Of a stretch of 64,000 nucleotides of DNA, positions 7,420-62,000 are shown piece after piece. Origin of the DNA: Dryomyza anilis (taxonomy: Eukaryota > Arthropoda > Insecta > Diptera > Dryomyzidae); NCBI GenBank assembly GCA_951804985.1, contig OX638132.1:12567529-12631528 (forward strand). The letters run 5' to 3'. The number at the start of each line of letters is the position of its first letter. The stretch's first letter is position 1. Under the pieces are notes generated by a model. The model did not search any database and had not been told where the DNA came from. It was given only the letters and a program-made list of their open reading frames with translations. Position numbers and translations under genes: made by a program.

Positions 7420-7975
7420 TTCCATACTTCTCATCAACCGATATTAATTGCATTTATTAATCAATCCAGCTATGAAATTCGTTAAATCAGCAATTCCGTT
7501 TGCTAATATGAATATTTGTACGTCAATGCAGCGAATTAATTTGTCGACTGCTGAAACTGCATCGACTAATTAAATTATGTGCTCCATTGACGTACAAATA
7601 TTCACATTAACCAAGAAAAGCAAAAGTTGTTATTAAATTAGTGAATTTCATTGCTGGATTGATTAAAGAATTCAGTTAATATCGATTGCTATATTAACCA
7701 AGAAAAGCAAATGTTTTTATGAAATTAGTGAATTTCATTGCTGGATTGATTAAAGAATTCAGTTAATATCGATTGCTATATTAACCAAGAAAAACAAATG
7801 TTTTTATTAAATTAGTGAATTTCATTGCTGGATTGATTAAAGAATTCAGTTAATATCGATTGCTATATTAACCAAGAAAAGCAAATGTTTTTATTAAATT
7901 AGTGAATTTCATTATTGGATTGATTAAAGAATTCAGTTAATATCGATTGCTATATTAACGTTGATTATTTTTTTC
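7420..7975. repeat. Foldback-type repeat with four 87-bp tandem units
   Basis: From 7607 to about 7960 an 87-bp unit (TTAACCAAGAAAAGCAAA...ATCGATTGCTATA) occurs four times at exact 87-bp spacing. To its left (7420-7600) the same sequence appears once inverted, around a CAGCGAATTAATTTGTCGA centre. The block ends about 180 bp before the dsx shared exon acceptor. Confidence 0.85.
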
Positions 7976-8156: not shown

Positions 8157-8294
8157 GTGAAGACGTATACCTTGAATATTGCCAGAAACTGCTAGAGAAA
8201 TTTCATTATCCATGGGAGATGATGCCACTCATGTTTGTGATACTGAAGGATGCGCGGGCCGACATTGAAGAGGCCTCCCGACGCATCGAAGAAG
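8157..8294 (+). CDS. dsx: doublesex shared exon (dimerisation domain)
   Basis: DSX is a DM-domain transcription factor that drives sexual differentiation; this exon encodes most of its C-terminal dimerisation domain. The 45 complete codons start EDVYLEYCQKLLEKFHYPWE and end EEASRRIEE. From family knowledge this matches the common exon that precedes the sex-specific split in flies. The acceptor is TTTTTAG before GTGAAG (8155-8156) and the donor is GTGAGTAA at 8295. The exon carries in two bases (GT) and carries out one (G), so its first complete codon follows a split, probably glycine, codon. Substitutions relative to my recollection of Drosophila (FHYPWEMMPLMF, KDARAD) are conservative or look lineage-specific. 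The DM-domain exon is not in the window. Confidence 0.95.
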
Positions 8295-8407
8295 GTGAGT
8301 AATGTGCTTTAAGCATTTAGAAACTATTTAAATGTTATATAATATTATTAAAAATAAAAATAAAAATAAAAAACCAAATCATAAAAATATCTGCCTACCT
8401 ATTACAG
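8295..8407 (+). promoter_or_regulatory. Short intron with weak female-specific acceptor
   Basis: A 113-nt intron from GTGAGTAATG to CTATTACAG. The acceptor is preceded by a purine-interrupted tract (ATCTGCCTACCTATTACAG) rather than a good polypyrimidine run. A short intron with a weak acceptor here is what is known for the regulated female splice of fly dsx. The acceptor end resembles that of the next intron (8492-8596), which appears to be its duplicate. Confidence 0.85.
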
Positions 8408-8491
8408 GCCAATACGTTGTAAACGAATATTCGCGGCTACACAATCTGAACATGTACGATGGGGGCGAGCTGCGGGGGCGCATTGAAGAAG
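8408..8491 (+). CDS. dsx: doublesex female-specific exon, first part
   Basis: After the split glycine the codons read QYVVNEYSRLHNLNMYDG, then GELRGRIEE, followed by a G and a strong donor GTGAGTAAAG at 8492. The first 23 residues are the classic DSX-F female tail. Instead of continuing from GELR into the expected S/N-TTRQCG end, it switches to GRIEEG plus a donor, a near copy of the end of the shared exon (CGCATYGAAGAAGGTGAGTAA at 8282 and 8479). The exon is 84 nt, so skipping or including it keeps frame. If the following intron is retained, the reading frame ends three codons later (GGT GAG TAA; stop at 8497-8499). See the separate finding on duplication. Confidence 0.92.
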
Positions 8492-8596
8492 GTGAGTAAA
8501 GTAGAGCTCTTCGTAAGCTAAAGTGCTAAAAATTGTATAAACTTTAAAAAGAAAATAAAAAAATTTAAATATTATCTGCCTGCCTGATACTTCCAG
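8492..8596 (+). other. Second short intron, probable duplicate of 8295-8407
   Basis: A 105-nt segment from GTGAGTAAAG to ATACTTCCAG. Its start (GAAGAAG before GTGAGTAA) and its end (ATCTGCCTGCCT, then an AG before GCCAATACG) mirror those of the upstream intron. The middle is AT-rich in both (AAAATAAAAA). The acceptor tract looks slightly better than the first one (CTGATACTTCCAG). Confidence 0.8.
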
Positions 8597-8637
8597 GCCA
8601 ATACGAGTTGCGTAGCACAACACGACAGTGCGGATGA
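8597..8637 (+). CDS. dsx: doublesex female-specific exon, terminal part
   Basis: After the split glycine it reads QYELRSTTRQCG and a TGA stop at 8635-8637. The TTRQCG end is the known terminus of DSX-F. Relative to the first part it repeats GQY and ELR but lacks the 17 residues VVNEYSRLHNLNMYDGG between them, an in-frame 51-nt loss. Joined to 8491 it gives ELRGRIEEGQYELRSTTRQCG-like continuity. Joined directly to 8294 it gives RIEEGQYELRSTTRQCG. Both keep frame; which is used cannot be decided from DNA alone. Confidence 0.92.
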
Positions 8638-9548
8638 TAATTTTTTATGAATTAATTTTTTATTCATTTAATTCAAAGAAATATTTCAAAGTTTGCAAAA
8701 AAAAGGGTGCACATTTCAAGCATATAAAGTAAACTGTACGCAGTTGCAATTATGAAATTCATATAATTTAAAAATTAAAACTTAAAAATATTTCTCACAG
8801 CTTTAATTCAAATCATGAATGTAATTCATACACGCTACAAATTCACAAAGTATTTTATTTAAAGTGTTCATTAAGTTGATTAAGTGCTAAGGAAGTAAAA
8901 ATCCAAGAACTGTGTTACCTTTAGTAAGAAAATAAAAAAAAAAATGAATACCAAAATCAAAATTCTCAAGCAAATCAAGAAAATTCAAAAATCATTTACA
9001 AAACTATGCATCAATCAACAATATTCAACAATCAACTAACCAATAATCGCCCCGAAGCGCCGGATTTCCACAGTCTTCAATCAACATTTTTTACAATTTG
9101 AAATAATTTGTAAAAGCCGTGCTACAAAACTCTTAATTCATTCAACAATCAACATTTATATACAACAATCAATATTCGATAATGGCAGCAATTCGACAAA
9201 TCACAATAAAATGGATCATCAAGCAACATTATAATTGGTTTGTTAAAAGGTACTTACTGAGCAACCCTGGAGGTCTTGAACACCTAACCAATATTCACAC
9301 TATAAATCAACACAGGAACGAAGTTCAATTTGGTTTTATTTATTTTAAGTTTATCTTTTATAAATAATTATTGTTTTATATATTATAACTAATAATACTT
9401 GTTGCCATCAGTGTAAAATTTATAATTTTATTTTTAACCAAACATTTTATATTAGGCATTGTTTTAGTTAAACATATACTTAATAATAATTTGGTAAGCG
9501 AAGTGTTATTGTAGAGAAAATGCGCAGTAAAGTGGAAAATTAAATAAA
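8638..9548 (+). other. dsx: Probable dsx female 3' UTR
   Basis: AT-rich sequence after the female stop codon. It contains the 13-nt repeat cluster at 9008-9174. AATAAA candidates occur at 8931 (upstream of the enhancer cluster) and at 9543-9548 (downstream of it). The distal one is preferred here because the enhancer must be in the female exon. The ORF at 9182-9364 overlaps this region and shows no family resemblance. The true 3' end is unknown. Confidence 0.6.
9008..9174 (+). promoter_or_regulatory. Tra/Tra2 splicing enhancer: cluster of five 13-nt dsx repeat elements
   Basis: Judged against the consensus TCWWCRATCAACA. Exact matches are 9074-9086 (TCTTCAATCAACA) and 9142-9154 (TCAACAATCAACA). 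One-mismatch copies are 9008-9020 and 9025-9037, and a two-mismatch copy is 9162-9174. A weaker 10/13 candidate ends at 9312. They start about 600 nt from the first female acceptor and about 410 nt from the second. In Drosophila such repeats bind Tra, Tra2 and an SR protein and activate the weak female acceptor. I did not find a clear purine-rich element like the Drosophila PRE. Confidence 0.93.
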
Positions 9549-9712: not shown

Positions 9713-11015
9713 ACATATCATCACTATCATGCCTAAGAGGCAAATGTGTAATTTTTTTTTTTCATTTTTGAATGTACTTTTTACTCATGTTTAGTGTGCC
9801 AAAATCGTGTATAGTTTTGTTGAATATTTCTAGCCACAAAGGACAAAACCAAAAGTGCGTATTTGAAAAATTGAAAATCTTGTCATGCCAAAAGGGCGAA
9901 TCTTTTCGTTTTTTTGCCATAACTTTTTAATGGTACTAGATAAAATAGTGGTGTAAAAAAATTAATTGTTTGCTTTTAAAGCACCTATCGATTGCCATCA
10001 TTACATTGTTTTAGCAAATAATAAAAGTTCGAAAAATTATTTTTAAAATAATGATAGCAATCGATAGATGCTTGAGAAACCAACAATTAATTACTTTGCA
10101 CAACTATTTTATCTTGTACCAATAAAAAGTTATGGCAAAAAAACGAAAAGATTTGCCCTTTTGGCATGACAAAATTTTGAATTTTTCGATTTTTGCTATT
10201 TGCACGCGATAACTTCTTATTGATATAAGATAAAATAGTTAAGTTAAGGCATTAATTGTTTGTTTTTAAAGCACATATCGATTGGCATCATTTTTCAAAT
10301 ATTTTTTTGTATTTTTGAAAATTTGTTGGAAAATTATATTTAAATAATGATGCCAATCAATAATAATAATAATATAATAATAATATAATAATTTGGCTCT
10401 ACAGTCCTGTTTAGAACTTCGGCCGAGCTCTCTTCTCTCACTATTTTGAGCTGTGCGTGTCATATTTGTACTCAAAGTGGTGGGACCTACAGTTTATTGC
10501 CGAATCCGAACGGCGGATGAGAGCGTTTCATAGTCAATGGTTTTACTCTCGTAGGTTTGCCATTTACTGACGAGAGGTAGCGCGGTATAGAAAAATGTTT
10601 CTATGAAAAAAATGTTGTTAGCCCCAGTCCAGGCTTGAACCGGGGACCTTTCGGCTCGCAGTCCAACGCACTAACCACTGAGCTACAGCGGCTACTATCA
10701 ATAGGTATATATAAAACAAGTAATAAATATATTTACAAATATATTTATAATTTACTATTTTAACTTGGTACAACTTTGTACAAGTTATGGAAAAAAAACA
10801 GAAATATTCGCTTTTGACCAGGATATTTCCACACAAAATCCGTATTTATTATTTAGTACGTTGTCCAAACCAAAAGATATTTTATATACATTATGCTAAT
10901 TGAAGAATAATTCAAAATAACAAAAACAAATAAAAAAACTTTATAATTGGATTTTTTAGCATTTTTAAAAATTCGCCAAGTCAGTGACAAGTGGCAAGTC
11001 AGTGACGATATAAGG
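9713..11015. mobile_element. TATCGTCACT-family TIR element, copy 1 (interrupted by a SINE)
   Basis: The left end TATCATCACTATCATGCC and right end CAGTGACGATATA match the ends of 15433-16411 and 41361-42010. Interior words include AAAAGGGCGAATCTTTTCG, GATAAAATAGTG and repeated AAAGCACCTATCGATTGGCATCAT in both orientations, making internal hairpins. A SINE sits inside it at 10359-10695. Non-coding. Confidence 0.75.
10359..10695 (-). mobile_element. tRNA-derived SINE, copy 2
   Basis: Collinear with 1246-1562. On the minus strand the head has an A-box-like GTAGCTCAGTGG and a B box GGTTCAAGCC. The tail is a TATTATTATTATATT-type run near 10360-10390. It is inserted into the TATCGTCACT-family element, so it is younger than that copy. 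Confidence 0.85.
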
Positions 11016-12738: not shown

Positions 12739-13266
12739 TAGACTGACAATGACTTTATATGAAAAAAAAGAAATCACCGAGTTTGATTTTGAAGGTCACC
12801 CCCTAGAAAAGCTCTATAGAATGCGAAGATCGATTTGGAGAATTTTCAGCGAAATCCGAATATGGGAAATGGATCCGCCGGGACCTCAAAGTAGGCGTTT
12901 TCGTACCTAAATCAACAATTTCAAAATTGAATTGATATGACGTCCCACAAACGCAATAAACTAAAAAAGTGGGTAAGTCATCTGTTGGAAAATTTTGTGA
13001 GCTTTTCAACAATTTAGATACGAACACGCTTACTTTGAGGTCCCGGCTGGTCCATTTCCCATATTCGGATTTCGCTGAAAATTCTTCATATCGATTTTCT
13101 CATCCAATAGAGCATTTCTAGGGGCTTACTTTGAGGTCCCGGCTGGTCCATTTCCCATATTCGGATTTCGCTGAAAATTCTTCATATCGATTTTCTCATC
13201 CAATAGAGCATTTCTAGGGGGTGACCTCCTCTCGATTCGAAATCATGATTTTCCAATGTCAGTCTA
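12739..13266. mobile_element. Foldback MITE with TAGACTGACA ends
   Basis: The left TAGACTGACAATG and right CAATGTCAGTCTA are inverted. Longer inner arms also pair: GAGGTCCCGG-type, GGAAATGG-type and TTCAGCGAAATCCGAATATG on the left against their inverses on the right. On the right arm a 96-bp unit is tandemly duplicated (13028-13219). Length 528 bp, non-coding. Confidence 0.8.
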
Positions 13267-29702: not shown

Positions 29703-29953
29703 CTGCCCATATACGCAATCAAGTCTTCCTAATGCAACTGCGCGAATCCTCACAGCGCTACTATGCCCAGTACTATGCGAGGGCAGCCCTGGCGAATGGC
29801 GCCCCCACGTACTTGTCCTACCAGGACCTACCGCTGACCATCGACGACAGAACGCATCTGATTACAACGATACGACCGCCAACGCCGGAAGCGCCACCAC
29901 TAAGTCAGTCGCCACACAGTCCGTCCAAGCCATCACGACCATCCAGCAGGTGA
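29703..29953 (+). CDS. dsx: doublesex male-specific exon
   Basis: The acceptor is a pyrimidine tract (TTATTTCCTCTTTTATCTCG) followed by ACAAACAG ending at 29702. The first two bases complete the split codon from the shared exon (G+CT, Ala), so the phase fits. The protein then reads AHIRNQVFLMQLRESSQRYY, continuing AQYYARAALANGAPTYLSY and later PPTPEAPPLSQSPHSPSKPS. NGAP.YL.Y, PPTPE, LS.SP.SPS and KPSRP.SS are features I recall of male DSX C-termini in flies. The frame ends at TGA 29951-29953, two codons after SS. A perfect donor (CAG before GTGAGT) starts at 29950. So the male protein either stops here or splices on to a further exon that was not identified. An internal ATG at 29732 is not a start. 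Confidence 0.9.
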
Positions 29954-30130
29954 GTCGCCAACGCCAACGCCAATCACAATGACAATGGCAATGGCAGCAA
30001 CACCCACCGTGGCGGTAACTTAGAACTAAAGAAGCAGCAACCGAAGCAGCAGCAACAAGAACAACAACAACTGAGATATCGCAACAGTATGGCAGCACTG
30101 GCTGCAGCAGCCGCAGGACTCTTAGTGTGA
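29954..30130 (+). pseudogene. dsx: Protein-like in-frame extension after the male exon TGA
   Basis: In the same frame as the male exon, 58 sense codons follow the TGA before the next stop at 30128-30130. The composition is protein-like: VANANANHNDNGNG, then GGNLELKKQQPKQQQQQEQ, RYRNSMAALAAAAAGLLV. A second donor (GTGAGTAG) starts at 30127, overlapping the stop. It could be coding sequence cut off by a recent nonsense change, a readthrough extension, part of an intron, or UTR. I list it as broken coding sequence with low certainty. Confidence 0.4.
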
Positions 30131-44053: not shown

Positions 44054-47000
44054 ATATTTCAGCAGAAATCACTGCAAATTTCATATAATTCGATTGAGCG
44101 GTTCCTCAGAAATCGGGTTTTGCATTTCGATTTTTATAAAAATTTCTTTAAATAGCTATAACTACTAAACGGAGCGTCCTAGAGGGTCGAAAGTAGGCGA
44201 ATTTTACAGAAATATATTTCAGCAGAAATCACTGCAAATTTCATATAATTCGATTGAGCGGTTCCTCAGAAATCGGGTTTTGAATTTCGATTTTTACAAA
44301 ATTTCTTTAAATGGCTATAACTCCTAAACGGAGCGTCCTAGAGGGTCGAAAGTAGGCGCATTTTATAGAAATATATTTCAGCAGAAATCACTGCAAATTT
44401 CATATAATTCGATTGAGCGGTTCCTCAGGAATTGGGTTTTGAATTTCGATTTATAAAAAATTTCTTTAAATGCCTATAACTCGTAAACGGAGCGTCCTGG
44501 AGGGTCGAAAGTAGGCGCATTTTATAGAAATATATTTCAGCAGAAATCACTGCAAATTTCATATAATTCAATTGAGCGGTTCCTCAGGAATTGGGGTTTG
44601 AATTTCGATTTTTAAAAAAATTCTTTAAATGGCTATAACTCCTAAACGGAGCGTCCTAGAGGGTCGAAAGAGCGGATTAAGCGGTTCCTCATAAATCGGG
44701 TTTTGAATTTCGTTTTTTTTTTAAATTTCTTTAAATGCCTATAACTCGTAAACGGAGCGTCCTGGAGGGTCGAAAGTAGGCGCATTTTATAGAAATATAT
44801 TTCAGCAGAAATCACTGCAAATTTCATATAATTCGATTGAGCGGTTCCTCAGGAATTGGGTTTTGAATTTCGATTTTTAAAAAATTTCTTTAAATGCCTA
44901 TAACTCGTTAACGGAGCGTCCTAGAGGGTCGAAAGTAGGCGCATTTTATAGAAATATATTTCAGCAGAAATCACTGCAAATTTCATATAATTCGATTGAA
45001 CGGTTCCTCAGAAATCGGGTTTTGAATTTCGATTTTTACAAAATTTCTTTAAATGGCTTTAACTCCTAAACGGAGCGTCATAGAGGGTCGAAAGTAGGCG
45101 CATTTTATAGAAATATATTTCAGCAGAAATCACTGCAAATTTCATATAATTCGATTGAGCGGTTCCTCAGATATCGGGTTTTGAATTTCGATTTTTACAA
45201 AATTTCTTTAAATGGCTATAACTCGTTAACGGAGCGTCCTAGAGGGTCGAAAGTAGGCGCATTTTATAGAAATATATTTCAGCAGAAATCACTGCAAATT
45301 TCATATAATTCGATTGAGCGGTTCCTCAGGAATTGGGTTTTGAATTTCGATTTTTAAAAAATTTCTTTAAATGCCTATAACTCGTAAATGGAGCATCCTA
45401 GATGGTCGAAAGTAGGCGCATTTTATAGAAATATATTTCAGCAGAAATCACTGCAAATTTCATATAATTCAATTGAGCGGTTCCTCAGGAATTGGGGTTT
45501 GAATTTCGATTTTTAAAAAAATTCTTTAAATGGCTATAACTCCTAAACGGAGCGTCCTAGAGGGTCGAAAGAGCGGATTAAGCGGTTCCTCATAAATCGG
45601 GTTTTGAATTTCGTTTTTTTTTTAAATTTCTTTAAATGCCTATAACTCGTAAACGGAGCGTCCTGGAGGGTCGAAAGTAGGCGCATTTTATAGAAATATA
45701 TTTCAGCAGAAATCACTGCAAATTTCATATAATTCGATTGAGCGGTTCCTCAGGAATTGGGTTTTGAATTTCGATTTTTAAAAAATTTCTTTAAATGCCT
45801 ATAACTCGTTAACGGAGCGTCCTAGAGGGTCGAAAGTAGGCGCATTTTATAGAAATATATTTCAGCAGAAATCACTGCAAATTTCATATAATTCGATTGA
45901 ACGGTTCCTCAGAAATCGGGTTTTGAATTTCGATTTTTACAAAATATCTTTAAATGGCTTTAACTCCTAAACGGAGCGTCATAGAGGGTCGAAAGTAGGC
46001 GCATTTTATAGAAATATATTTCAGCAGAAATCACTGCAAATTTCATATAATTCGATTGAGCGGTTCCTCAGGAATTGGGTTTTGAATTTCGATTTTTAAA
46101 AAATTTCTTTAAATGCCTATAACTCGTAAATGGAGCATCCTAGATGGTCGAAAGTAGGCGCATTTTATAGAAATATATTTCAGCAGAAATCACTGCAAAT
46201 TTCATATAATTCGATTGAACGGTTCCTCAGAAATCGGGTTTTGAATTTCGATTTTTACAAAATTTCTTTAAATGGCTTTAACTCCTAAACGGAGCGTCAT
46301 AGAGGGTCGAAAGTAGGCGCATTTTATAGAAATATATTTCAGCAGAAATCACTGCAAATTTCATATAATTCGATTGAGCGGTTCCTCAGATATCGGGTTT
46401 TGAATTTCGATTTTTACAAAATTTCTTTAAATGGCTATAACTCGTTAACGGAGCGTCCTAGAGGGTCGAAAGTAGGCGCATTTTATAGAAATATATTTCA
46501 GCAGAAATCACTGCAAATTTCATATAATTCGATTGAGCGGTTCCTCAGATATCGGGTTTTGAATTTCGATTTTTACAAAATTTCTTTAAATGGCTATAAC
46601 TCGTTAACGGTGCGTCCTAGAGGGTCGAAAGTAGGCGCATTTTATAGAAATATATTTCAGCAGAAATCACTGCAAATTTCATATAATTCGATTGAGCGGT
46701 TCCTCAGGAATTGGGTTTTGAATTTCGATTTTTAAAAAATTTCTTTAAATGCCTATAACTCGTAAATGGAGCATCCTAGATGGTCGAAAGTAGGCGCATT
46801 TTATAGAAATGTATTTCAGCAGAAATCACTGCAATTTTCATATAATTCGATTGAGCGGTTCCTCAGAAATCGGGTTTTGAATTTCGATTTTTAAAAAAGT
46901 CTTTAAATGGGTATAACTCCTAAACGGAGCGTACTAGAGGGTCGAAAGTAGGCGCATTTTATAGAAATATATTTCAGCAGAAATCACTGCAAATTTCATA

Positions 47001-50000
47001 TAATTCGATTGAGCGGTTCCTCAGGAATTGGGTTTTGAATTTCGATTTTTAAAAAATTTCTTTAAATGCCTATAACTCGTAAATGGAGCATCCTAGATGG
47101 TCGAAAGTAGGCGCATTTTATAGAAATATATTTCAGCAGAAATCACTGCAAATTTCATATAATTCGATTGAACGGTTCCTCAGAAATCGGGTTTTGAATT
47201 TCGATTTTTACAAAATTTCTTTAAATGGCTTTAACTCCTAAACGGAGCGTCATAGAGGGTCGAAAGTAGGCGCATTTTATAGAAATATATTTCAGCAGAA
47301 ATCACTGCAAATTTCATATAATTCGATTGAGCGGTTCCTCAGATATCGGGTTTTGAATTTCGATTTTTACAAAATTTCTTTAAATGGCTATAACTCGTTA
47401 ACGGAGCGTCCTAGAGGGTCGAAAGTAGGCGCATTTTATAGAAATATATTTCAGCAGAAATCACTGCAAATTTCATATAATTCGATTGAGCGGTTCCTCA
47501 GAAATCGGGTTTTGAATTTCGATTTTTACAAAATTTCTTTAAATGGCTTTAACTCCTAAACGGAGCGTCATAGAGGGTCGAAAGTAGGCGCATTTTATAG
47601 AAATATATTTCAGCAGAAATCACTGCAAATTTCATATAATTCGATTGAGCGGTTCCTCAGGAATTGGGTTTTGAATTTCGATTTTTAAAAAATTTCTTTA
47701 AATGCCTATAACTCGTAAATGGAGCATCCTAGATGGTCGAAAGTAGGCGCATTTTATAGAAATATATTTCAGCAGAAATCACTGCAAATTTCATATAATT
47801 CGATTGAACGGTTCCTCAGAAATCGGGTTTTGAATTTCGATTTTTACAAAATTTCTTTAAATGGCTTTAACTCCTAAACGGAGCGTCATAGAGGGTCGAA
47901 AGTAGGCGCATTTTATAGAAATATATTTCAGCAGAAATCACTGCAAATTTCATATAATTCGATTGAGCGGTTCCTCAGATATCGGGTTTTGAATTTCGAT
48001 TTTTACAAAATTTCTTTAAATGGCTATAACTCGTTAACGGAGCGTCCTAGAGGGTCGAAAGTAGGCGCATTTTATAGAAATATATTTCAGCAGAAATCAC
48101 TGCAAATTTCATATAATTCGATTGAGCGGTTCCTCAGATATCGGGTTTTGAATTTCGATTTTTACAAAATTTCTTTAAATGGCTATAACTCGTTAACGGT
48201 GCGTCCTAGAGGGTCGAAAGTAGGCGCATTTTATAGAAATATATTTCAGCAGAAATCACTGCAAATTTCATATAATTCGATTGAGCGGTTCCTCAGAAAT
48301 CGGGTTTTGAATTTCGATTTTTACAAAATTTCTTTAAATGGCTTTAACTCGTAAACGGAGCGTCCTAGAGGGTCGAAAGTAGGCGCATTTTATAGAAATG
48401 TATTTCAGCAGAAATCACTGCAATTTTCATATAATTCGATTGAGCGGTTCCTCAGAAATCGGGTTTTGAATTTCGATTTTTAAAAAAGTCTTTAAATGGG
48501 TATAACTCCTAAACGGAGCGTACTAGAGGGTCGAAAGTAGGCGCATTTTATAGAAATATATTTCAGCAGAAATCACTGCAAATTTCATATAATTCGATTG
48601 AGCGGTTCCTCAGGAATTGGGTTTTGAATTTCGATTTATAAAAAATTTCTTTAAATGCCTATAACTCGTAAACGGAGCGTCCTGGAGGGTCGAAAGTAGG
48701 CGCATTTTATAGAAATATATTTCAGCAGAAATCACTGCAAATTTCATATAATTCAATTGAGCGGTTCCTCAGGAATTGGGGTTTGAATTTCGATTTTTAA
48801 AAAAATTCTTTAAATGGCTATAACTCCTAAACGGAGCGTCCTAGAGGGTCGAAAGAGCGGATTAAGCGGTTCCTCATAAATCGGGTTTTGAATTTCGTTT
48901 TTTTTTTAAATTTCTTTAAATGCCTATAACTCGTAAACGGAGCGTCCTGGAGGGTCGAAAGTAGGCGCATTTTATAGAAATATATTTCAGCAGAAATCAC
49001 TGCAAATTTCATATAATTCGATTGAGTGGTTCCTCAGATATCGGGTTTTGAATTTCGATTTTTACAAAATTTCTTTAAATGGCTATAACTCGTTAACGGA
49101 GCGTCCTAGAGGGTCGAAAGTAGGCGCATTTTATAGAAATATATTTCAGCAGAAATCACTGCAAATTTCATATAATTCGATTGAGCGGTTCACTGCAGAA
49201 ATCGGGTTTTGAATTTCGATTTTTACAAAATATCTTTAAATGGCTTTAACTCCTAAACGGAGCGTCATAGAGGGTCGAAAGTAGGCGCATTTTATAGAAA
49301 TATATTTCAGCAGAAATCACTGCAAATTTCATATAATTCGATTGAGCGGTTCCTCAGGAATTGGGTTTTGAATTTCGATTTTTAAAAAATTTCTTTAAAT
49401 GCCTATAACTCGTAAATGGAGCATCCTAGATGGTCGAAAGTAGGCGCATTTTATAGAAATATATTTCAGCAGAAATCACTGCAAATTTCATATAATTCGA
49501 TTGAACGGTTCCTGAGAAATCGGGTTTTGAATTTCGATTTTTACAAAATTTCTTTAAATGGCTTTAACTCCTAAACGGAGCGTCATAGAGGGTCGAAAGT
49601 AGGCGCATTTTATAGAAATATATTTCAGCAGAAATCACTGCAAATTTCATATAATTCGATTGAGTGGTTCCTCAGATATCGGGTTTTGAATTTCGATTTT
49701 TACAAAATTTCTTTAAATGGCTATAACTCGTTAACGGAGCGTCCTAGAGGGTCGAAAGTAGGCGCATTTTATAGAAATATATTTCAGCAGAAATCACTGC
49801 AAATTTCATATAATTCGATTGAACGGTTCCTGAGAAATCGGGTTTTGAATTTCGATTTTTACAAAATTTCTTTAAATGGCTATAACTCCTAAACGGAGCG
49901 TCATAGAGGGTCGAAAGTAGGCGCATTTTATAGAAATATATTTCAGCAGAAATCACTGCAAATTTCATATAATTCGATTGAGTGGTTCCTCAGATATCGG

Positions 50001-53000
50001 GTTTTGAATTTCGATTTTTACAAAATTTCTTTAAATGGCTATAACTCGTTAACGGAGCGTCCTAGAGGGTCGAAAGTAGGCGCATTTTATAGAAATATAT
50101 TTCAGCAGAAATCACTGCAAATTTCATATAATTCGATTGAGCGGTTCCTCAGATATCGGGTTTTGAATTTCGATTTTTACAAAATTTCTTTAAATGGCTA
50201 TAACTCGTTAACGGAGCGTCCTAGAGGGTCGAAAGTAGGCGCATTTTATAGAAATATATTTCAGCAGAAATCACTGCAAATTTCATATAATTCGATTGAG
50301 CGGTTCCTCAGAAATCGGGTTTTGAATTTCGATTTTTACAAAATTTCTTTAAATGGCTTTAACTCGTAAACGGAGCGTCCTAGAGGGTCGAAAGTAGGCG
50401 CATTTTATAGAAATGTATTTCAGCAGAAATCACTGCAATTTTCATATAATTCGATTGAGCGGTTCCTCAGAAATCGGGTTTTGAATTTCGATTTTTAAAA
50501 AAGTCTTTAAATGGGTATAACTCCTAAACGGAGCGTACTAGAGGGTCGAAAGTAGGCGCATTTTATATAAATATATTTCAGCAGAAATCACTGCAAATTT
50601 CATATAATTCGAATGAGCTGTTCCTCAGAAATCTGGTTTTGAATTTCGATTTTTAAAAAATTTCTTTAAATGCCTATAACTCGTAAACAGAGCGTCCTTG
50701 AGGGTCGAAAGTAGGCGCATTTTATAGAAATATATTTCAGCAGAAATCACTGCCAATTTCATATAATTCGATTGAGCGGTTCCTCAGAAATCGGGTTTTG
50801 AATTTCGATTTTTACAAAATTTCTTTAAATGCCTATAACTCGTAAACAGAGCGTCCTTGAGGGTCGAAAGTAGGCGCATTTTATAGAAATATATTTCAGC
50901 AGAAATCACTGCAAATTTCATATAATTCGATTGAACGGTTCCTCAGAAATCGGGTTTTGATTTTCGATTTTTACAAAATTTCTTTAAATGGCTTTAACTC
51001 CTAAACGGAGCGTCATAGAGGGTCGAAAGTAGGCGCATTTTATAGAAATATATTTCAGCAGAAATCACTGCAAATTTCATATAATTCGATTGAGCGGTTC
51101 CTCAGGAATTGGGTTTTGAATTTCGATTTTTAAAAAATTTCTTTAAATGCCTATAACTCGTAAATGGAGCATCCTAGATGGTCGAAAGTAGGCGCATTTT
51201 ATAGAAATATATTTCAGCAGAAATCACTGCAAATTTCATATAATTCGATTGAACGGTTCCTCAGAAATCGGGTTTTGAATTTCGATTTTTACAAAATTTC
51301 TTTAAATGGCTTTAACTCCTAAACGGAGCGTCATAGAGGGTCGAAAGTAGGCGCATTTTATAGAAATATATTTCAGCAGAAATCACTGCAAATTTCATAT
51401 AATTCGATTGAGTGGTTCCTCAGATATCGGGTTTTGAATTTCGATTTTTACAAAATTTCTTTAAATGGCTATAACTCGTTAACGGAGCGTCCTAGAGGGT
51501 CGAAAGTAGGCGCATTTTATAGAAATATATTTCAGCAGAAATCACTGCAAATTTCATATAATTCGATTGAACGGTTCCTGAGAAATCGGGTTTTGAATTT
51601 CGATTTTTACAAAATTTCTTTAAATGGCTATAACTCCTAAACGGAGCGTCATAGAGGGTCGAAAGTAGGCGCATTTTATAGAAATATATTTCAGCAGAAA
51701 TCACTGCAAATTTCATATAATTCGATTGAGTGGTTCCTCAGATATCGGGTTTTGAATTTCGATTTTTACAAAATTTCTTTAAATGGCTATAACTCGTTAA
51801 CGGAGCGTCCTAGAGGGTCGAAAGTAGGCGCATTTTATAGAAATATATTTCAGCAGAAATCACTGCAAATTTCATATAATTCGATTGAGCGGTTCCTCAG
51901 ATATCGGGTTTTGAATTTCGATTTTTACAAAATTTCTTTAAATGGCTATAACTCGTTAACGGAGCGTCCTAGAGGGTCGAAAGTAGGCGCATTTTATAGA
52001 AATATATTTCAGCAGAAATCACTGCAAATTTCATATAATTCGATTGAGCGGTTCCTCAGAAATCGGGTTTTGAATTTCGATTTTTACAAAATTTCTTTAA
52101 ATGGCTTTAACTCGTAAACGGAGCGTCCTAGAGGGTCGAAAGTAGGCGCATTTTATAGAAATGTATTTCAGCAGAAATCACTGCAATTTTCATATAATTC
52201 GATTGAGCGGTTCCTCAGAAATCGGGTTTTGAATTTCGATTTTTAAAAAAGTCTTTAAATGGGTATAACTCCTAAACGGAGCGTACTAGAGGGTCGAAAG
52301 TAGGCGCATTTTATAGAAATATATTTCAGCAGAAATCACTGCAAATTTCATATAATTCGAATGAGCTGTTCCTCAGAAATCTGGTTTTGAATTTCGATTT
52401 TTAAAAAATTTCTTTAAATGCCTATAACTCGTAAACAGAGCGTCCTTGAGGGTCGAAAGTAGGCGCATTTTATAGAAATATATTTCAGCAGAAATCACTG
52501 CCAATTTCATATAATTCGATTGAGCGGTTCCTCAGAAATCGGGTTTTGAATTTCGATTTTTACAAAATTTCTTTAAATGCCTATAACTCGTAAACAGAGC
52601 GTCCTTGAGGGTCGAAAGTAGGCGCATTTTATAGAAATATATTTCAGCAGAAATCACTGCAAATTTCATATAATTCGATTGAACGGTTCCTCAGAAATCG
52701 GGTTTTGATTTTCGATTTTTACAAAATTTCTTTAAACGGCTTTAACTCCTAAACGGAGCGTCCTGGAGGGTCGAAAGTAGGCGCATTTTATAGAAATATA
52801 TTTCAGCAGAAATCACTGCAAATTTCATATAATTCGATTGAGCGGTTCCTCAGGAATTGGGTTTTGAATTTCGATTTTTAAAAAATTTCTTTAAATGCCT
52901 ATAACTCGTAAACGGAGCGTCCTGGAGGGTCGAAAGTAGGCGCATTTTATAGAAATATATTTCAGCAGAAATCACTGCAAATTTCATATAATTCGATTGA

Positions 53001-56000
53001 ACGGTTCCTCAGAAATCGGGTTTTGAATTTCGATTTTTACAAAATTTCTTTAAATGGCTTTAACTCCTAAACGGAGCGTCATAGAGGGTCGAAAGTAGGC
53101 GCATTTTATAGAAATATATTTCAGCAGAAATCACTGCAAATTTCATATAATTCGATTGAGTGGTTCCTCAGATATCGGGTTTTGAATTTCGATTTTTACA
53201 AAATTTCTTTAAATGGCTATAACTCGTTAACGGAGCGTCCTAGAGGGTCGAAAGTAGGCGCATTTTATAGAAATATATTTCAGCAGAAATCACTGCAAAT
53301 TTCATATAATTCGATTGAGCGGTTCCTCAGATATCGGGTTTTGAATTTCGATTTTTACAAAATTTCTTTAAATGGCTATAACTCGTTAACGGAGCGTCCT
53401 AGAGGGTCGAAAGTAGGCGCATTTTATAGAAATATATTTCAGCAGAAATCACTGCAAATTTCATATAATTCGATTGAGCGGTTCCTCAGAAATCGGGTTT
53501 TGAATTTCGATTTTTACAAAATTTCTTTAAATGGCTTTAACTCGTAAACGGAGCGTCCTAGAGGGTCGAAAGTAGGCGCATTTTATAGAAATGTATTTCA
53601 GCAGAAATCACTGCAATTTTCATATAATTCGATTGAGCGGTTCCTCAGAAATCGGGTTTTGAATTTCGATTTTTAAAAAGTCTTTAAATGGGTATAACTC
53701 CTAAACGGAGCGTACTAGAGGGTCGAAAGTAGGCGCATTTTATAGAAATATATTTCAGCAGAAATCACTGCAAATTTCATATAATTCGATTGAACGGTTC
53801 CTCAGAAATCGGGTTTTGAATTTCGATTTTTAAAAAATTTCTTTAAATGCCTATAACTCGTAAACGGAGCGTCCTGGAGGGTCGAAAGTAGGCGAATTTT
53901 ACAGAAATATATTTCAGCAGAAATCACTGCAAATTTCATATAATTCGATTGAGCTGTTCCTCAGAAATCGGGTTTTGCATTTCGATTTTTAAAAAATTTC
54001 TTTAAATGGTTATAACTCGTAAACGGAGCGTCCTAGAGGGTCGAAAGTAGGCGCATTTTATAGAAATATATTTCAGCAGAAATCACTGCCAATTTCATAT
54101 AATTCGATTGAGCGGTTCCTCAGAAATCGGGTTTTGAATTTCGATTTTTACAAAATTTCTTTAAATGCCTATAACTCGTAAACAGAGCGTCCTTGAGGGT
54201 CGAAAGTAGGCGCATTTTATAGAAATATATTTCAGCAGAAATCACTGCAAATTTCATATAATTCGATTGAACGGTTCCTCAGAAATCGGGTTTTGAATTT
54301 CGATTTTTACAAAATTTCTTTAAACGGCTTTAACTCCTAAACGGAGCGTCCTGGAGGGTCGAAAGTAGGCGCATTTTATAGAAATATATTTCAGCAGAAA
54401 TCACTGCAAATTTCATATAATTCGATTGAGCGGTTCCTCAGGAATTGGGTTTTGAATTTCGATTTTTAAAAAATTTCTTTAAATGCCTATAACTCGTAAA
54501 CGGAGCGTCCTGGAGGGTCGAAAGTAGGCGAATTTTACAGAAATATATTTCAGCAGAAATCACTGCAAATTTCATATAATTCGATTGAGCTGTTCCTCAG
54601 AAATCGGGTTTTGCATTTCGATTTTTAAAAAATTTCTTTAAATGGTTATAACTCGTAAACGGAGCGTCCTAGAGGGTCGAAAGTAGGCGCATTTTATAGA
54701 AATATATTTCAGCAGAAATCACTGCAAATTTCATATAATTCGATTGAGCGGTTCCTCAGAAATCGGGTTTTGAATTTCGATTTTTACAAAATTTCTTTAA
54801 ATGGCTTTAACTCCTAAACGGAGCGTCCTAGAGGGTCGAAAGTAGGCGCATTTTATAGAAATATATTTCAGCAGAAATCACTGCAAATTTCATATAATTC
54901 GATTGAGCGGTTCCTCAGGAATTGGGTTTTGAATTTCGATTTTTAAAAAATTTCTTTAAATGCCTATAACTCGTAAATGGAGCATCCTAGACGGTCGAAA
55001 GTAGGCGCATTTTATAGAAATATATTTCAGCAGAAATCACTGCAAATTTCATATAATTCGATTGAGCGGTTCCTCAGAAATCACTGCAAATTTCATATAA
55101 TTCGATTGAGCGGTTCCTCAGAAATCGGGTTTTGAATTTCGATTTTTACAAAATTTCTTTAAATGGCTTTAACTCCTAAACGGAGCGTCCTAGAGGGTCG
55201 AAAGTAGGCGCATTTTATAGAAATATATTTCAGCAGAAATCACTGCAAATTTCATATAATTCGATTGAACGGTTCCTCAGAAATCGGGTTTTGAATTTCG
55301 ATTTTTACAAAATTTCTTTAAATGGCTTTAACTCCTAAACGGAGCGTCATAGAGGGTCGAAAGTAGGCGCATTTTATAGAAATATATTTCAGCAGAAATC
55401 ACTGCAAATTTCATATAATTCGATTGAGCGGTTCCTCAGATATCGGGTTTTGAATTTCGATTTTTACAAAATTTCTTTAAATGGCTTTAACTCCTAAACG
55501 GAGCGTCATAGAGGGTCGAAAGTAGGCGCATTTTATAGAAATATATTTCAGCAGAAATCACTGCAAATTTCATATAATTCGATTGAGCGGTTCCTCAGAT
55601 ATCGGGTTTTGAATTTCGATTTTTACAAAATTTCTTTAAATGGCTATAACTCGTTAACGGAGCGTCCTAGAGGGTCGAAAGTAGGCGCATTTTATAGAAA
55701 TATATTTCAGCAGAAATCACTGCAAATTTCATATAATTCGATTGAGCGGTTCCTCAGGAATTGGGTTTTGAATTTCGATTTTTAAAAAATTTCTTTAAAT
55801 GCCTATAACTCGTAAATGGAGCATCCTAGACGGTCGAAAGTAGGCGCATTTTATAGAAATATATTTCAGCAGAAATCACTGCAAATTTCATATAATTCGA
55901 TTGAGCGGTTCCTCAGAAATCACTGCAAATTTCATATAATTCGATTGAGCGGTTCCTCAGAAATCGGGTTTTGAATTTCGATTTTTACAAAATTTCTTTA

Positions 56001-59000
56001 AATGGCTTTAACTCCTAAACGGAGCGTCCTAGAGGGTCGAAAGTAGGCGCATTTTATAGAAATATATTTCAGCAGAAATCACTGCAAATTTCATATAATT
56101 CGATTGAGCGGTTCCTCAGAAATCGGGTTTTGCATTTCGATTTTTAAAAAATTTCTTTAAATGGTTATAACTCGTAAACGGAGCGCCCTAGAGGGTCGAA
56201 AGTAGGCGCATTTTATAGAAATATATTTCAGCAGAAATCACTGCAAATTTCATATAATTCGATTGAACGGTTCCTCAGAAATCGGGTTTTGAATTTCGAT
56301 TTTTACAAAATTTCTTTAAATGGCTTTAACTCCTAAACGGAGCGTCATAGAGGGTCGAAAGTAGGCGCATTTTATAGAAATATATTTCAGCAGAAATCAC
56401 TGCAAATTTCATATAATTCGATTGAGCGGTTCCTCAGATATCGGGTTTTGAATTTCGATTTTTACAAAATTTCTTTAAATGGCTTTAACTCCTAAACGGA
56501 GCGTCATAGAGGGTCGAAAGTAGGCGCATTTTATAGAAATATATTTCAGCAGAAATCACTGCAAATTTCATATAATTCGATTGAGCGGTTCCTCAGATAT
56601 CGGGTTTTGAATTTCGATTTTTACAAAATTTCTTTAAATGGCTATAACTCGTTAACGGAGCGTCCTAGAGGGTCGAAAGTAGGCGCATTTTATAGAAATA
56701 TATTTCAGCAGAAATCACTGCAAATTTCATATAATTCGATTGAGCGGTTCCTCAGAAATCGGGTTTTGAATTTCGATTTTTACAAAATTTCTTTAAATGG
56801 CTTTAACTCCTAAACGGAGCGTCCTAGAGGGTCGAAAGTAGGCGCATTTTATAGAAATATATTTCAGCAGAAATCACTGCAAATTTCATATAATTCGATT
56901 GAGCGGTTCCTCAGGAATTGGGTTTTGAATTTCGATTTTTAAAAAATTTCTTTAAATGCCTATAACTCGTAAATGGAGCATCCTAGACGGTCGAAAGTAG
57001 GCGCATTTTATAGAAATATATTTCAGCAGAAATCACTGCAAATTTCATATAATTCGATTGAGCGGTTCCTCAGAAATCACTGCAAATTTCATATAATTCG
57101 ATTGAGCGGTTCCTCAGAAATCGGGTTTTGAATTTCGATTTTTACAAAATTTCTTTAAATGGCTTTAACTCCTAAACGGAGCGTCCTAGAGGGTCGAAAG
57201 TAGGCGCATTTTATAGAAATATATTTCAGCAGAAATCACTGCAAATTTCATATAATTCGATTGAGCGGTTCCTCAGAAATCGGGTTTTGCATTTCGATTT
57301 TTAAAAAATTTCTTTAAATGGTTATAACTCGTAAACGGAGCGCCCTAGAGGGTCGAAAGTAGGCGCATTTTATAGAAATATATTTCAGCAGAAATCACTG
57401 CAAATTTCATATAATTCGATTGAGCGGTTCCTCAGAAATCGGGTTTTGAATTTCGATTTTTACAAAATTTCTTTAAATGGCTTTAACTCCTAAACGGAGC
57501 GTCCTAGAGGGTCGAAAGTAGGCGCATTTTATAGAAATATATTTCAGCAGAAATCACTGCAAATTTCATATAATTCGATTGAGCGGTTCCTCAGAAATCG
57601 GGTTTTGCATTTCGATTTTTAAAAAATTTCTTTAAATGGTTATAACTCGTAAACGGAGCGCCCTAGAGGGTCGAAAGTAGGCGCATTTTATAGAAATATA
57701 TTTCAGCAGAAATCACTGCAAATTTCATATAATTCGATTGAGCGGTTCCTCAGATATCGGGTTTTGAATTTCGATTTTTACAAAATTTCTTTAAATGGCT
57801 ATAACTCGTTAACGGAGCGTCCTAGAGGGTCGAAAGTAGGCGCATTTTATAGAAATATATTTCAGCAGAAATCACTGCAAATTTCATATAATTCGATTGA
57901 GCGGTTCCTCAGAAATCGGGTTTTGAATTTCGATTTTTACAAAATTTCTTTAAATGGCTTTAACTCCTAAACGGAGCGTCATAGAGGGTCGGAAGTAGGC
58001 GCATTTTATAGAAATATATTTCAGCAGAAATCACTGCAAATTTCATATAATTCGATTGAGCGGTTCTTCAGAAATCTGGTTTTGAATTTCGATTTTTATA
58101 AAATTTCTTTAAATGCCTATAACTCGTAAACGGAGCGTCCTGGAGGGTCGAAAGTAGGCGCATTTTATAGAAATATATTTCAGCAGAAATCACTGCAAAT
58201 TTCATATAATTCGATTGAGCGGTTCCTCAGGAATTGGGTTTTGAATTTCGATTTTTAAAAAATTTCTTTAAATGCCTATAACTCGTAAACGGAGCGTCCT
58301 GGAGGGTCGAAAGTAGGCGAATTTTACAGAAATATATTTCAGAAGAAATCACTGCAAATTTCATATAATTCGATTGAGCGGTTCCTCAGAAATCGGGTTT
58401 TGCATTTCGATTTTTAAAAAATTTCTTTAAATGGTTATAACTCGTAAACGGAGCGTCCTAGAGGGTCGAAAGTAGGCGCATTTTATAGAAATATATTTCA
58501 GCAGAAATCACTGCAAATTTCATATAATTCGATTGAACGGTTCCTCAGAAATCGGGTTTTGAATTTCGATTTTTACAAAATTTCTTTAAACGGCTTTAAC
58601 TCCTAAACGGAGCGTCCTAGAGGGTCGAAAGTAGGCGCATTTTATAGAAATATATTTCAGCAGAAATCACTGCAAATTTCATACTATTCGATTGAGCGGT
58701 TCCTCAGGAATTGGGTTTTGAATTTCGATTTTTAAAAAATTTCTTTAAATGCCTATAACTCGTAAATGGAGCATCCTAGACGGTCGAAAGTAGGCGCATT
58801 TTATAGAAATATATTTCAGCAGAAATCACTGCAAATTTCATATAATTCGATTGAACGGTTCCTCAGAAATCGGGTTTTGAATTTCGATTTTTACAAAATT
58901 TCTTTAAACGGCTTTAACTCCTAAACGGAGCGTCCTAGAGGGTCGAAAGTAGGCGCATTTTATAGAAATATATTTCAGCAGAAATCACTGCAAATTTCAT

Positions 59001-62000
59001 ACTATTCGATTGAGCGGTTCCTCAGGAATTGGGTTTTGAATTTCGATTTTTAAAAAATTTCTTTAAATGGTTATAACTCGTAAACGGAGCGTCCTAGAGG
59101 GTCGAAAGTAGGCGCATTTTATAGAAATATATTTCAGCAGAAATCACTGCAAATTTTATATAATTCGATTGAGCGGTTCCTCAGAAATCGGGTTTTGAAT
59201 TTCGATTTTTACAAAATTTCTTTAAATGGCTTTAACTCCTAAACGGAGCGTCCTAGAGGGTCGAAAGTAGGCGCATTTTATAGAAATATATTTCAGCAGA
59301 AATCACTGCAAATTTCATATAATTCGATTGAGCGGTTCCTCAGGAATTGGGTTTTGAATTTCGATTTTTAAAAAATTTCTTTAAATGCCTATAACTCGTA
59401 AATGGAGCATCCTAGACGGTCGAAAGTAGGCGCATTTTATAGAAATATATTTCAGCAGAAATCACTGCAAATTTCATATAATTCGATTGAGCGGTTCCTC
59501 AGAAATCACTGCAAATTTCATATAATTCGATTGAGCGGTTCCTCAGAAATCGGGTTTTGAATTTCGATTTTTACAAAATTTCTTTAAATGGCTTTAACTC
59601 CTAAACGGAGCGTCCTAGAGGGTCGAAAGTAGGCGCATTTTATAGAAATATATTTCAGCAGAAATCACTGCAAATTTCATATAATTCGATTGAGCGGTTC
59701 CTCAGAAATCGGGTTTTGCATTTCGATTTTTAAAAAATTTCTTTAAATGGTTATAACTCCTAAATGGAGCATCCTAGACGGTCGAAAGTAGGCGCATTTT
59801 ATAGAAATATATTTCAGCAGAAATCACTGCAAATTTCATATAATTCGATTGAGCGGTTCCTCAGAAATCACTGCAAATTTCATATAATTCGATTGAGCGG
59901 TTCCTCAGAAATCGGGTTTTGAATTTCGATTTTTACAAAATTTCTTTAAATGGCTTTAACTCGTAAACGGAGCGCCCTAGAGGGTCGAAAGTAGGCGCAT
60001 TTTATAGAAATATATTTCAGCAGAAATCACTGCAAATTTCATATAATTCGATTGAGCGGTTCCTCAGATATCGGGTTTTGAATTTCGATTTTTACAAAAT
60101 TTCTTTAAATGGCTATAACTCGTTAACGGAGCGTCCTAGAGGGTCGAAAGTAGGCGCATTTTATAGAAATATATTTCAGCAGAAATCACTGCAAATTTCA
60201 TATAATTCGATTGAGCGGTTCCTCAGAAATCGGGTTTTGAATTTCGATTTTTACAAAATTTCTTTAAATGGCTTTAACTCCTAAACGGAGCGTCCTAGAG
60301 GGTCGAAAGTAGGCGCATTTTATAGAAATATATTTCAGCAGAAATCACTGCAAATTTCATATAATTCGATTGAGCGGATCCTCAGGAATTGGGTTTTGAA
60401 TTTCGATTTTTAAAAAATTTCTTTAAATGCCTATAACTCGTAAATGGAGCATCCTAGACGGTCGAAAGTAGGCGCATTTTATAGAAATATATTTCAGCAG
60501 AAATCACTGCAAATTTCATATAATTCGATTGAGCGGTTCCTCAGAAATCGGGTTTTGCATTCCGATTTTTAAAAAATTTCTTTAAATGGTTATAACTCGT
60601 AAACGGAGCGCCCTAGAGGGTCGAAAGTAGGCGCATTTTATAGAAATATATTTCAGCAGAAATCACTGCAAATTTCATATAATTCGATTGAGCGGTTCCT
60701 CAGAAATCGGGTTTTGCATTCCGATTTTTAAAAAATTTCTTTAAATGGTTATAACTCGTAAACGGAGCGCTCTAGAGGGTCGAAAGTAGGCGCATTTTAT
60801 AGAAATATATTTCAGCAGAAATCTGAATTTCGATTTTTACAAAATTTCTTTAAATGGCTTTAACTCCTAAACGGAGCGTCCTAGAGGGTCGAAAGTAGGC
60901 GCATTTTATAGAAATATATTTCAGCAGAAATCACTGCAAATTTCATATAATTCGATTGAGCGGTTCCTCAGAAATCGGGTTTTGCATTTCGATTTTTAAA
61001 AAATTTCTTTAAATGGTTATAACTCCTAAATGGAGCATCCTAGACGGTCGAAAGTAGGCGCATTTTATAGAAATATATTTCAGCAGAAATCACTGCAAAT
61101 TTCATATAATTCGATTGAGCGGTTCCTCAGAAATCACTGCAAATTTCATATAATTCGATTGAGCGGTTCCTCAGAAATCGGGTTTTGAATTTCGATTTTT
61201 ACAAAATTTCTTTAAATGGCTTTAACTCCTAAACGGAGCGTCCTAGAGGGTCGAAAGTAGGCGCATTTTATAGAAATATATTTCAGCAGAAATCACTGCA
61301 AATTTCATATAATTCGATTGAGCGGTTCCTCAGAAATCGGGTTTTGCATTTCGATTTTTAAAAAATTTCTTTAAATGGTTATAACTCGTAAACGGAGCGC
61401 CCTAGAGGGTCGAAAGTAGGCGCATTTTATAGAAATATATTTCAGCAGAAATCACTGCAAATTTCATATAATTCGATTGAGCGGTTCCTCAGATATCGGG
61501 TTTTGAATTTCGATTTTTACAAAATTTCTTTAAATGGCTATAACTAGTTAACGGAGCGTCCTAGAGGGTCGAAAGTAGGCGCATTTTATAGAAATATATT
61601 TCAGCAGAAATCACTGCAAATTTCATATAATTCGATTGAGCGGTTCCTCAGAAATCGGGTTTTGAATTTCGATTTTTACAAAATTTCTTTAAATGGCTTT
61701 AACTCCTAAACGGAGCGTCCTAGAGGGTCGAAAGTAGGCGCATTTTATAGAAATATATTTCAGCAGAAATCACTGCAAATTTCATATAATTCGATTGAGC
61801 GGTTCCTCAGGAATTGGGTTTTGAATTTCGATTTTTAAAAAATTTCTTTAAATGCCTATAACTCGTAAATGGAGCATCCTAGACGGTCGAAAGTAGGCGC
61901 ATTTTATAGAAATATATTTCAGCAGAAATCACTGCAAATTTCATATAATTCGATTGAGCGGTTCCTCAGAAATCACTGCAAATTTCATATAATTCGATTG

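What the first reader, a model, noticed from the sequence alone, without database searches (positions are those of the whole stretch)
8282..8637. The dsx female exon is split by an internal tandem duplication that carries its own intron
Seen directly: CGCATCGAAGAAGGTGAGTA at 8282 (end of the shared exon) recurs as CGCATTGAAGAAGGTGAGTA at 8479, inside the female coding sequence. GCCAATACG at 8408 (female exon start) recurs at 8597. GAGCTGCG at 8467 recurs as GAGTTGCG at 8605. The simplest history is a tandem duplication of the junction (shared-exon end, intron, female exon to ELR), followed by in-frame loss of 51 nt (VVNEYSRLHNLNMYDGG) in the second copy. The known fly DSX-F tail is one uninterrupted exon ending GELR-x-TTRQCG. 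The result here is a new donor, a 105-nt intron and a second acceptor in a highly conserved sex-determining switch.
Basis: partly seen in the sequence, partly recalled or inferred. Interest (0 to 1): 0.93.

Follow-up and report, generated by a model that had tools for sequence, protein, structure and literature searches.

The report
Doublesex female exon split by duplication
In this fly the sex-switch gene doublesex appears to have copied part of itself so that its usually single female exon is cut in two by a copied intron, a real and unusual but not unprecedented rearrangement of a highly conserved switch.

Summary
The end of the dsx shared exon with its donor (8282-8302) recurs at 8479-8499 with one mismatch, and the female acceptor with GGCCAATACG (8405-8416) recurs at 8594-8605; 0 of 100 shuffles gave either pair. 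Joined, shared exon (8157-8294), F1 (8408-8491) and F2 (8597-8637) read in one frame as a DSX-F tail with an 11-residue insert: NMYDGGELR-GRIEEGQYELR-STTRQCG*. The copied codons differ at 3 of 30 bases, all synonymous, while intron interiors keep only weak similarity, so both copies look selected as coding; an assembly artefact is unlikely. Six Tra/Tra2-type 13-mers follow F2; a male exon starts at 29703. Breakpoints differ and this fly resembles tephritids and Drosophila more, so its event looks independent. One templated insertion explains the letters as well as duplication plus a 51-nt loss. No RNA and no fly genome beyond the window could be examined. New variant of a known kind.

The parts
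8157..8294 (+). dsx shared exon (dimerisation domain, EDVYLEYC...EASRRIEE), ends phase 1
8295..8407 (+). intron 1, 113 nt, GTGAGT...CAG
8408..8491 (+). female exon F1, 84 nt, phase 1/1: QYVVNEYSRLHNLNMYDGGELR then GRIEE(G), with copied donor
   Evidence: tblastn 91% over 23 aa
8479..8499 (+). copy of the shared-exon end and donor (first copy 8282-8302)
8492..8596 (+). intron 2, 105 nt, copy of intron 1
   Evidence: 0 of 1000 dinucleotide shuffles reach the intron1/intron2 alignment score
8597..8637 (+). female exon F2 coding part: QYELRSTTRQCG and stop TGA
   Evidence: ELRSTTRQCG end as in Bactrocera P0009
8594..8605 (+). copy of the female acceptor and exon start (first copy 8405-8416)
9008..9228 (+). 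six dsxRE-like 13-mers (starts 9008, 9025, 9074, 9142, 9162, 9216) in the presumed F2 3' UTR
   Evidence: 0-2 mismatches to TC(A/T)(A/T)C(A/G)ATCAACA (consensus recalled); the + strand holds 8 such matches in 64 kb, six of them here; the - strand has 6, scattered
29703..29949 (+). male-specific exon, AAHIRNQV...SPSKPSRPSS, ending at a GTGAGT at 29950-29955 if spliced there; unspliced, the frame stops at TGA 29951-29953
   Evidence: tblastn lead, sequence, 41 of 89 alignment columns identical to Anastrepha male DSX

Best explanation
An intron-bearing stretch of dsx (shared-exon end, intron, start of the female exon) was copied in place into the female coding sequence just after ELR. Because donor and acceptor were both copied in the same phase, the new intron can be removed in frame, and females make shared-F1-F2 mRNA whose DSX-F tail is normal except for an 11-residue insert, GRIEEGQYELR, between GELR and STTRQCG. 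The Tra/Tra2-type repeats downstream of F2 are inferred to activate the two copied acceptors in females; males skip both and join the shared exon to the exon at 29703. Shown: the copies, the frame, the repeats, the conservation. Inferred: splice-site use, sex specificity, order of splicing.
For: The conserved female helix VVNEYSRLHNLNMYDG is reachable only through acceptor 1 and the conserved STTRQCG-stop only through acceptor 2, so a whole DSX-F tail needs both. Copied codons RIEEGQYELR are 27 of 30 nt identical, all 3 changes synonymous; with equal chances for every base change, all three synonymous has a chance of about 0.013. Donor AAG|GTGAGT identical in both copies. Six dsxRE-like 13-mers start 411-619 nt from acceptor 2, near the 300-600 nt given for the Drosophila dsx repeats (passage of PMC5861446). 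Intron-to-intron similarity points to DNA-level copying rather than retroposition. Over the last 40 nt acceptor 1 has the fewest pyrimidines of the four acceptors compared (18 of 38, against 21 for F2, 23 male, 24 shared), as expected of a regulated site.
Against: No RNA evidence. With a crude recalled 15-nt matrix acceptors F1 and F2 (9.4 and 8.9 bits) score above the male one (3.2) and the shared-exon one (6.2), unlike the weak-female-acceptor model. No YTNAY branch point at a usable distance in either intron; the only match lies 9 nt from acceptor 2. Acceptor 1 lies 600-808 nt from the 13-mers in unspliced RNA, beyond the Drosophila span. A strong donor just after F1 should favour exon definition of F1 in males too (general knowledge). 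Interior intron similarity alone is weak: 12 of 1000 shuffles and 35 of 2952 random pieces of the window's first 43 kb score as well.
Confidence: 0.74

Rival explanations
1. Two female isoforms instead of one: some mRNAs join the shared exon straight to F2 (tail RIEEGQYELRSTTRQCG, without the female helix), others include F1 or end in retained intron 2 (GGELRGRIEEGE*). This is like Aedes, where exon 5a is included or skipped.
For: All these outcomes are in frame; acceptor 2 is the one at Drosophila-like distance from the 13-mers; Aedes precedent (passages of PMC3045327).
Against: The F2-only tail loses the female helix, whose motifs (NEYSR-like or NLN-YD-like) 48 of the 89 retrieved DSX proteins carry by a loose pattern; acceptor 2 is nearer to the F1 donor (105 nt) than to the shared donor.
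Confidence: 0.13
2. F1 has become a cassette exon used in both sexes, so that the sexes differ only after it (F2 or the male exon).
For: F1 is 84 nt with equal phases; shared+F1+male reads through in frame. [quoted passage not shown]
Against: F1 here keeps the female helix almost unchanged, whereas the calyptrate copies have diverged; a female helix in males should be harmful (inference).
Confidence: 0.07
3. History: one templated insertion, not tandem duplication plus loss. A staggered break at GAGCTGCG was repaired with a copied RIEEG-intron-QY piece, leaving GAG(C/T)TGCG on both sides. (A rival to the history only; it can be true together with the best explanation.)
For: One event; 8-nt near-repeats flank the insert; repeats of 4-12 bp shared by intron and exon are reported for new Daphnia introns formed by staggered breaks (passages of PMC4202315).
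Against: Tandem duplication then a 51-nt deletion at a 2-nt CG microhomology gives the same letters; a few extra G at the left joint are explained by neither.
Confidence: 0.45
4. Assembly artefact or merged haplotypes.
For: Raw reads could not be seen.
Against: Copies differ by 3 synonymous changes, a 51-nt difference and diverged introns, while frame and splice sites are kept.
Confidence: 0.03

Closest known systems
Drosophila/tephritid dsx female exon
   Same: shared exon, short intron, VVNEYSR-HNLN-YDGGELR...TTRQCG tail, downstream 13-nt Tra/Tra2 repeats, distal male exon
   Different: here the coding part is cut by a second intron and carries GRIEEGQYELR
Calyptrate extra segment: Cochliomyia P0015, Sarcophaga P0016, Glossina P0018, Calliphora P0082 (protein records only; no calyptrate DNA was seen)
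   Same: a second female-exon-like copy lies between the shared exon and the next tail; in Cochliomyia and Calliphora, and less clearly Sarcophaga, it ends in a match to the shared-exon end (TTKRIRLEG, compare EASKRIEEG)
   Different: there the upstream copy has diverged and the downstream one is whole; breakpoints differ; in Calliphora it is joined to the male tail. Here the upstream copy is whole and the downstream one lacks 17 codons
Aedes aegypti dsx exons 5a/5b
   Same: female-specific part split by an intron not seen in Anopheles
   Different: exons of 461 and 465 bp, and 5a carries its own stop; the paper's main text holds the stem 'duplicat' 0 times
[quoted passage not shown] potato RdRp, PMC4974935; abstracts seen)
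   Same: new intron position made by local copying with splice signals inherited
   Different: those copy exonic sequence or one exon/intron boundary; here a whole intron with both flanks was copied

Membership tests
dsx gene | Doublesex dimerisation domain | tested here: met
   PF08828 E 3.4e-30, residues 2-48
dsx gene | DM DNA-binding domain | tested here: inconclusive
   No DM match in the window (best E 0.63); it would lie 5' of the window
dsx gene | alternative female and male 3' exons | tested here: met
   Female tail at 8408-8637 and male exon at 29703 by homology; use in each sex not testable here
Drosophila-type regulated female exon | cluster of Tra/Tra2 13-mers in the female 3' UTR | tested here: met
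   six at 9008-9228, 0-2 mismatches
Drosophila-type regulated female exon | single terminal female coding exon | tested here: not met
   in-frame second intron predicted; splicing itself not shown
Drosophila-type regulated female exon | female acceptor weaker than male acceptor | tested here: inconclusive
   a crude recalled matrix gives the reverse; pyrimidine counts over 38 nt agree with it (18 and 21 against 23)
[quoted passage not shown]
[quoted passage not shown]
   no RNA; only frame and site conservation
Calyptrate extra dsx segment | same breakpoints | tested here: not met
   here the joint is GELR-G-RIEEG; Cochliomyia has 20 further residues between EWR and TTKRIRLEG; compared at protein level only

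The most novel reading that the evidence does not exclude
Local copying of the shared-exon/female-exon junction is a recurrent, independent event in fly dsx. It turns the female terminal exon into a phase-matched internal exon that can splice to either the female or the male tail. This fly is an early stage in which F1 still encodes the whole female helix, and calyptrates (Calliphora, Cochliomyia) are a late stage in which the copy has decayed into an exon used in both sexes.
Probability: 0.2. Interest if true: 0.85.

Novelty: new variant of a known kind. Interest (0 to 1): 0.6.

Why it matters
The dsx female exon is highly conserved in insects. A natural in-frame insert plus a second intron in it would show that the tail and the enhancer spacing tolerate change, and it gives a direct test of how Tra/Tra2 activates two successive copied acceptors. 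The calyptrate comparison suggests a route by which a female exon becomes a shared exon.

Tried and rejected
Assembly duplicate: rejected on the divergence pattern. Dating the event from intron identity: abandoned, because 78 of 97 aligned bases (80%) is little above the 75.5% mean that 100 shuffled AT-rich sequences give under the same global alignment. Shared origin with the calyptrate copy: not favoured, since breakpoints differ and the male exon is nearer to Anastrepha (41 of 89 columns) and D. simulans (40 of 83) than to Calliphora (27 of 83); no tree was built. A Drosophila-like PRE: one AAAGGACAAAA at 9838, but 18 of 100 shuffles have at least one. Second male exon: no convincing hit. 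The male donor score printed was taken one base off and is not used. Rfam at gathering thresholds and ARAGORN: nothing. Species: not identified; 0 of 89 retrieved proteins has this joint.

Literature on a duplicated dsx female exon: I saw the listings (1 of 1 paper; 11 of 11; 6 of 6; 25 of 35; 2 of 2; 12 of 16; 15 of 18; 10 of 10), with titles and abstract openings; none of these names a duplicated female exon. The butterfly paper PMC8557438 reports a partial tandem dsx duplication involving exon 1 (passages). Papers cited in these passages but not looked up, such as Hediger 2004 and Concha 2010, may hold more. Passages of PMC6721801, PMC3632534, PMC10380613, PMC4255793 and PMC10380434 were seen and added little.

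Calls without an answer: the genome search 'own' (not completed). Errors of mine: region one residue beyond the query; a term the tool cannot use; a report with fields in the wrong form.

Full report
What is there. The window holds the 3' part of a fly doublesex gene on the + strand: a shared exon at 8157-8294, female exons at 8408-8491 (F1) and 8597 onward (F2), and a male exon from 29703. The joined female product matches the Doublesex dimerisation domain of Pfam (E 3.4e-30) and the solved DSX structures 2jz1 and 1zv1. The DM domain was not found in the window and would lie upstream. The last 20 kb of the window are satellite DNA.

The copies. The 21-mer at 8282 has exactly two matches in the window within 3 mismatches, and the 12-mer CAGGCCAATACG exactly two within 1 mismatch; 0 of 100 shuffles gave two of either. 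The two introns, 113 and 105 nt, align better than 1000 of 1000 dinucleotide shuffles over their whole length. Without the first 8 and last 30 nt the excess is weaker: 12 of 1000 shuffles reach it, and so do 35 of 2952 random pieces of like length from the first 43 kb of the window; a cruder single-base shuffle of a slightly different interior gave 7 of 500. So the interiors are largely worn out. In contrast the 30 coding bases shared by the copies (RIEEGQYELR) differ at three places, all synonymous; 21 of 90 possible single changes there are synonymous, so three of three has a chance near 0.013 if all changes are equally likely. Coding letters kept, intron letters lost: both copies appear to have been read as protein.

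What it makes. Shared+F1+F2 gives ...EASRRIEEGQYVVNEYSRLHNLNMYDGGELRGRIEEGQYELRSTTRQCG*. With intron 2 retained the tail would stop at GGELRGRIEEGE; without F1 it would lose the female helix. Since the conserved helix is in F1 and the conserved end in F2, joint use is the most economical reading. The insert starts at residue 70 of the 87-residue query, right at the end of the stretch matched in 2jz1 (1-71), probably in a flexible tail (inference; no structure was predicted).

Regulation. Six 13-mers with 0-2 mismatches to the recalled dsxRE consensus lie at 9008-9228; of 8 such matches on the + strand of 64 kb, these are 6, and the - strand has 6, scattered. They start 411-619 nt from acceptor 2 and 600-808 nt from acceptor 1, or 495-703 nt from it once intron 2 is out. 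Drosophila dsx repeats are said to lie 300-600 nt from the acceptor, and the effect of tethered RS domains to decline with distance (passages of PMC5861446). I infer that acceptor 2 is the main target and acceptor 1 follows. Evidence on acceptor strength is mixed: by a crude recalled 15-nt matrix both female acceptors score above the male and shared-exon ones (9.4 and 8.9 against 3.2 and 6.2 bits), while by pyrimidines in the last 40 nt F1 is the poorest (18 of 38; F2 21, male 23, shared 24). F1 also has a strong donor that should favour its inclusion in males. This is the least certain part.

Relatives. Three protein searches returned 89 distinct proteins. By a loose pattern 48 of 89 have a female-type tail, and 0 of 89 have this fly's joint. 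Cochliomyia P0015 and Sarcophaga P0016 have an extra segment before VVNEYSR, and Glossina P0018 a longer one (seen). The head of that segment resembles the female exon: against three female tails (Cochliomyia, this window, Glossina), shuffles reaching the score were 28, 0, 2 of 2000 for Cochliomyia; 2, 0, 0 for Sarcophaga; 0, 0, 0 for Glossina; and 912, 173, 217 for Calliphora, which is not significant. Its end resembles the shared-exon end in Cochliomyia (0 of 2000), Calliphora (1) and Sarcophaga (17), not in Glossina (1322). Calliphora P0082 matches the Cochliomyia query at 81% over 78% of it and continues into the male tail; its link to the female exon therefore rests on Cochliomyia and Sarcophaga. 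All this is from protein records; exon borders were not seen. [quoted passage not shown] that identification is mine. Stomoxys P0023 lacks it in the retrieved isoform. [quoted passage not shown] whether m is this exon is open.

Independence. The breakpoints differ (here the copy joins directly after GELR-G; in Cochliomyia 20 residues intervene), the altered copy is the opposite one, and this fly's male exon is nearer to tephritids and Drosophila than to Calliphora. I take the events as separate, without a tree.

History. Tandem duplication followed by a 51-nt in-frame deletion is possible. One insertion of a copied RIEEG-intron-QY piece at GAGCTGCG, leaving an 8-nt near-repeat, needs one event and resembles the staggered-break footprint reported for Daphnia introns (passages of PMC4202315). 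The sequence alone does not decide. Intron gain by local duplication is known in Drosophila and potato (abstracts of PMC2891723 and PMC4974935).

Novelty. A split female exon is known in Aedes, and a later paper calls it likely an intron gain there (passages of PMC3045327, and PMC4461909). A female exon cut by a copy of its own regulated intron was not named in the titles or abstract openings listed, three of which (26, 39, 45) showed only part of their hits. I file it as a new variant of a known kind.

Noticed in passing
window 44054-64000: About 20 kb of satellite with a 159-bp unit and 44, 106, 203 and 362-bp related periods, running to the window end, 3' of the dsx male exon.
   Followed up: no
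window 7606-7959: About four copies of an 87-bp unit, 97% matching, in the intron about 200 nt before the dsx shared exon.
   Followed up: no
window 13028-13220: Perfect two-copy tandem repeat of a 96-bp unit.
   Followed up: no
window 10600-10700: Sequence that looks to the eye like a tRNA-derived element on the - strand; Rfam and ARAGORN report nothing.
   Followed up: partly
P0082, P0015, P0016, P0018: A diverged female-exon-like copy in calyptrate DSX proteins, followed by the male tail in Calliphora: possibly the origin of an extra calyptrate dsx exon.
   Followed up: partly
P0018, residues after about 110: The Glossina austeni DSX record has a long charged insert with repeated EHEDP-KR-R-HNE-D units before the female tail.
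   Followed up: no
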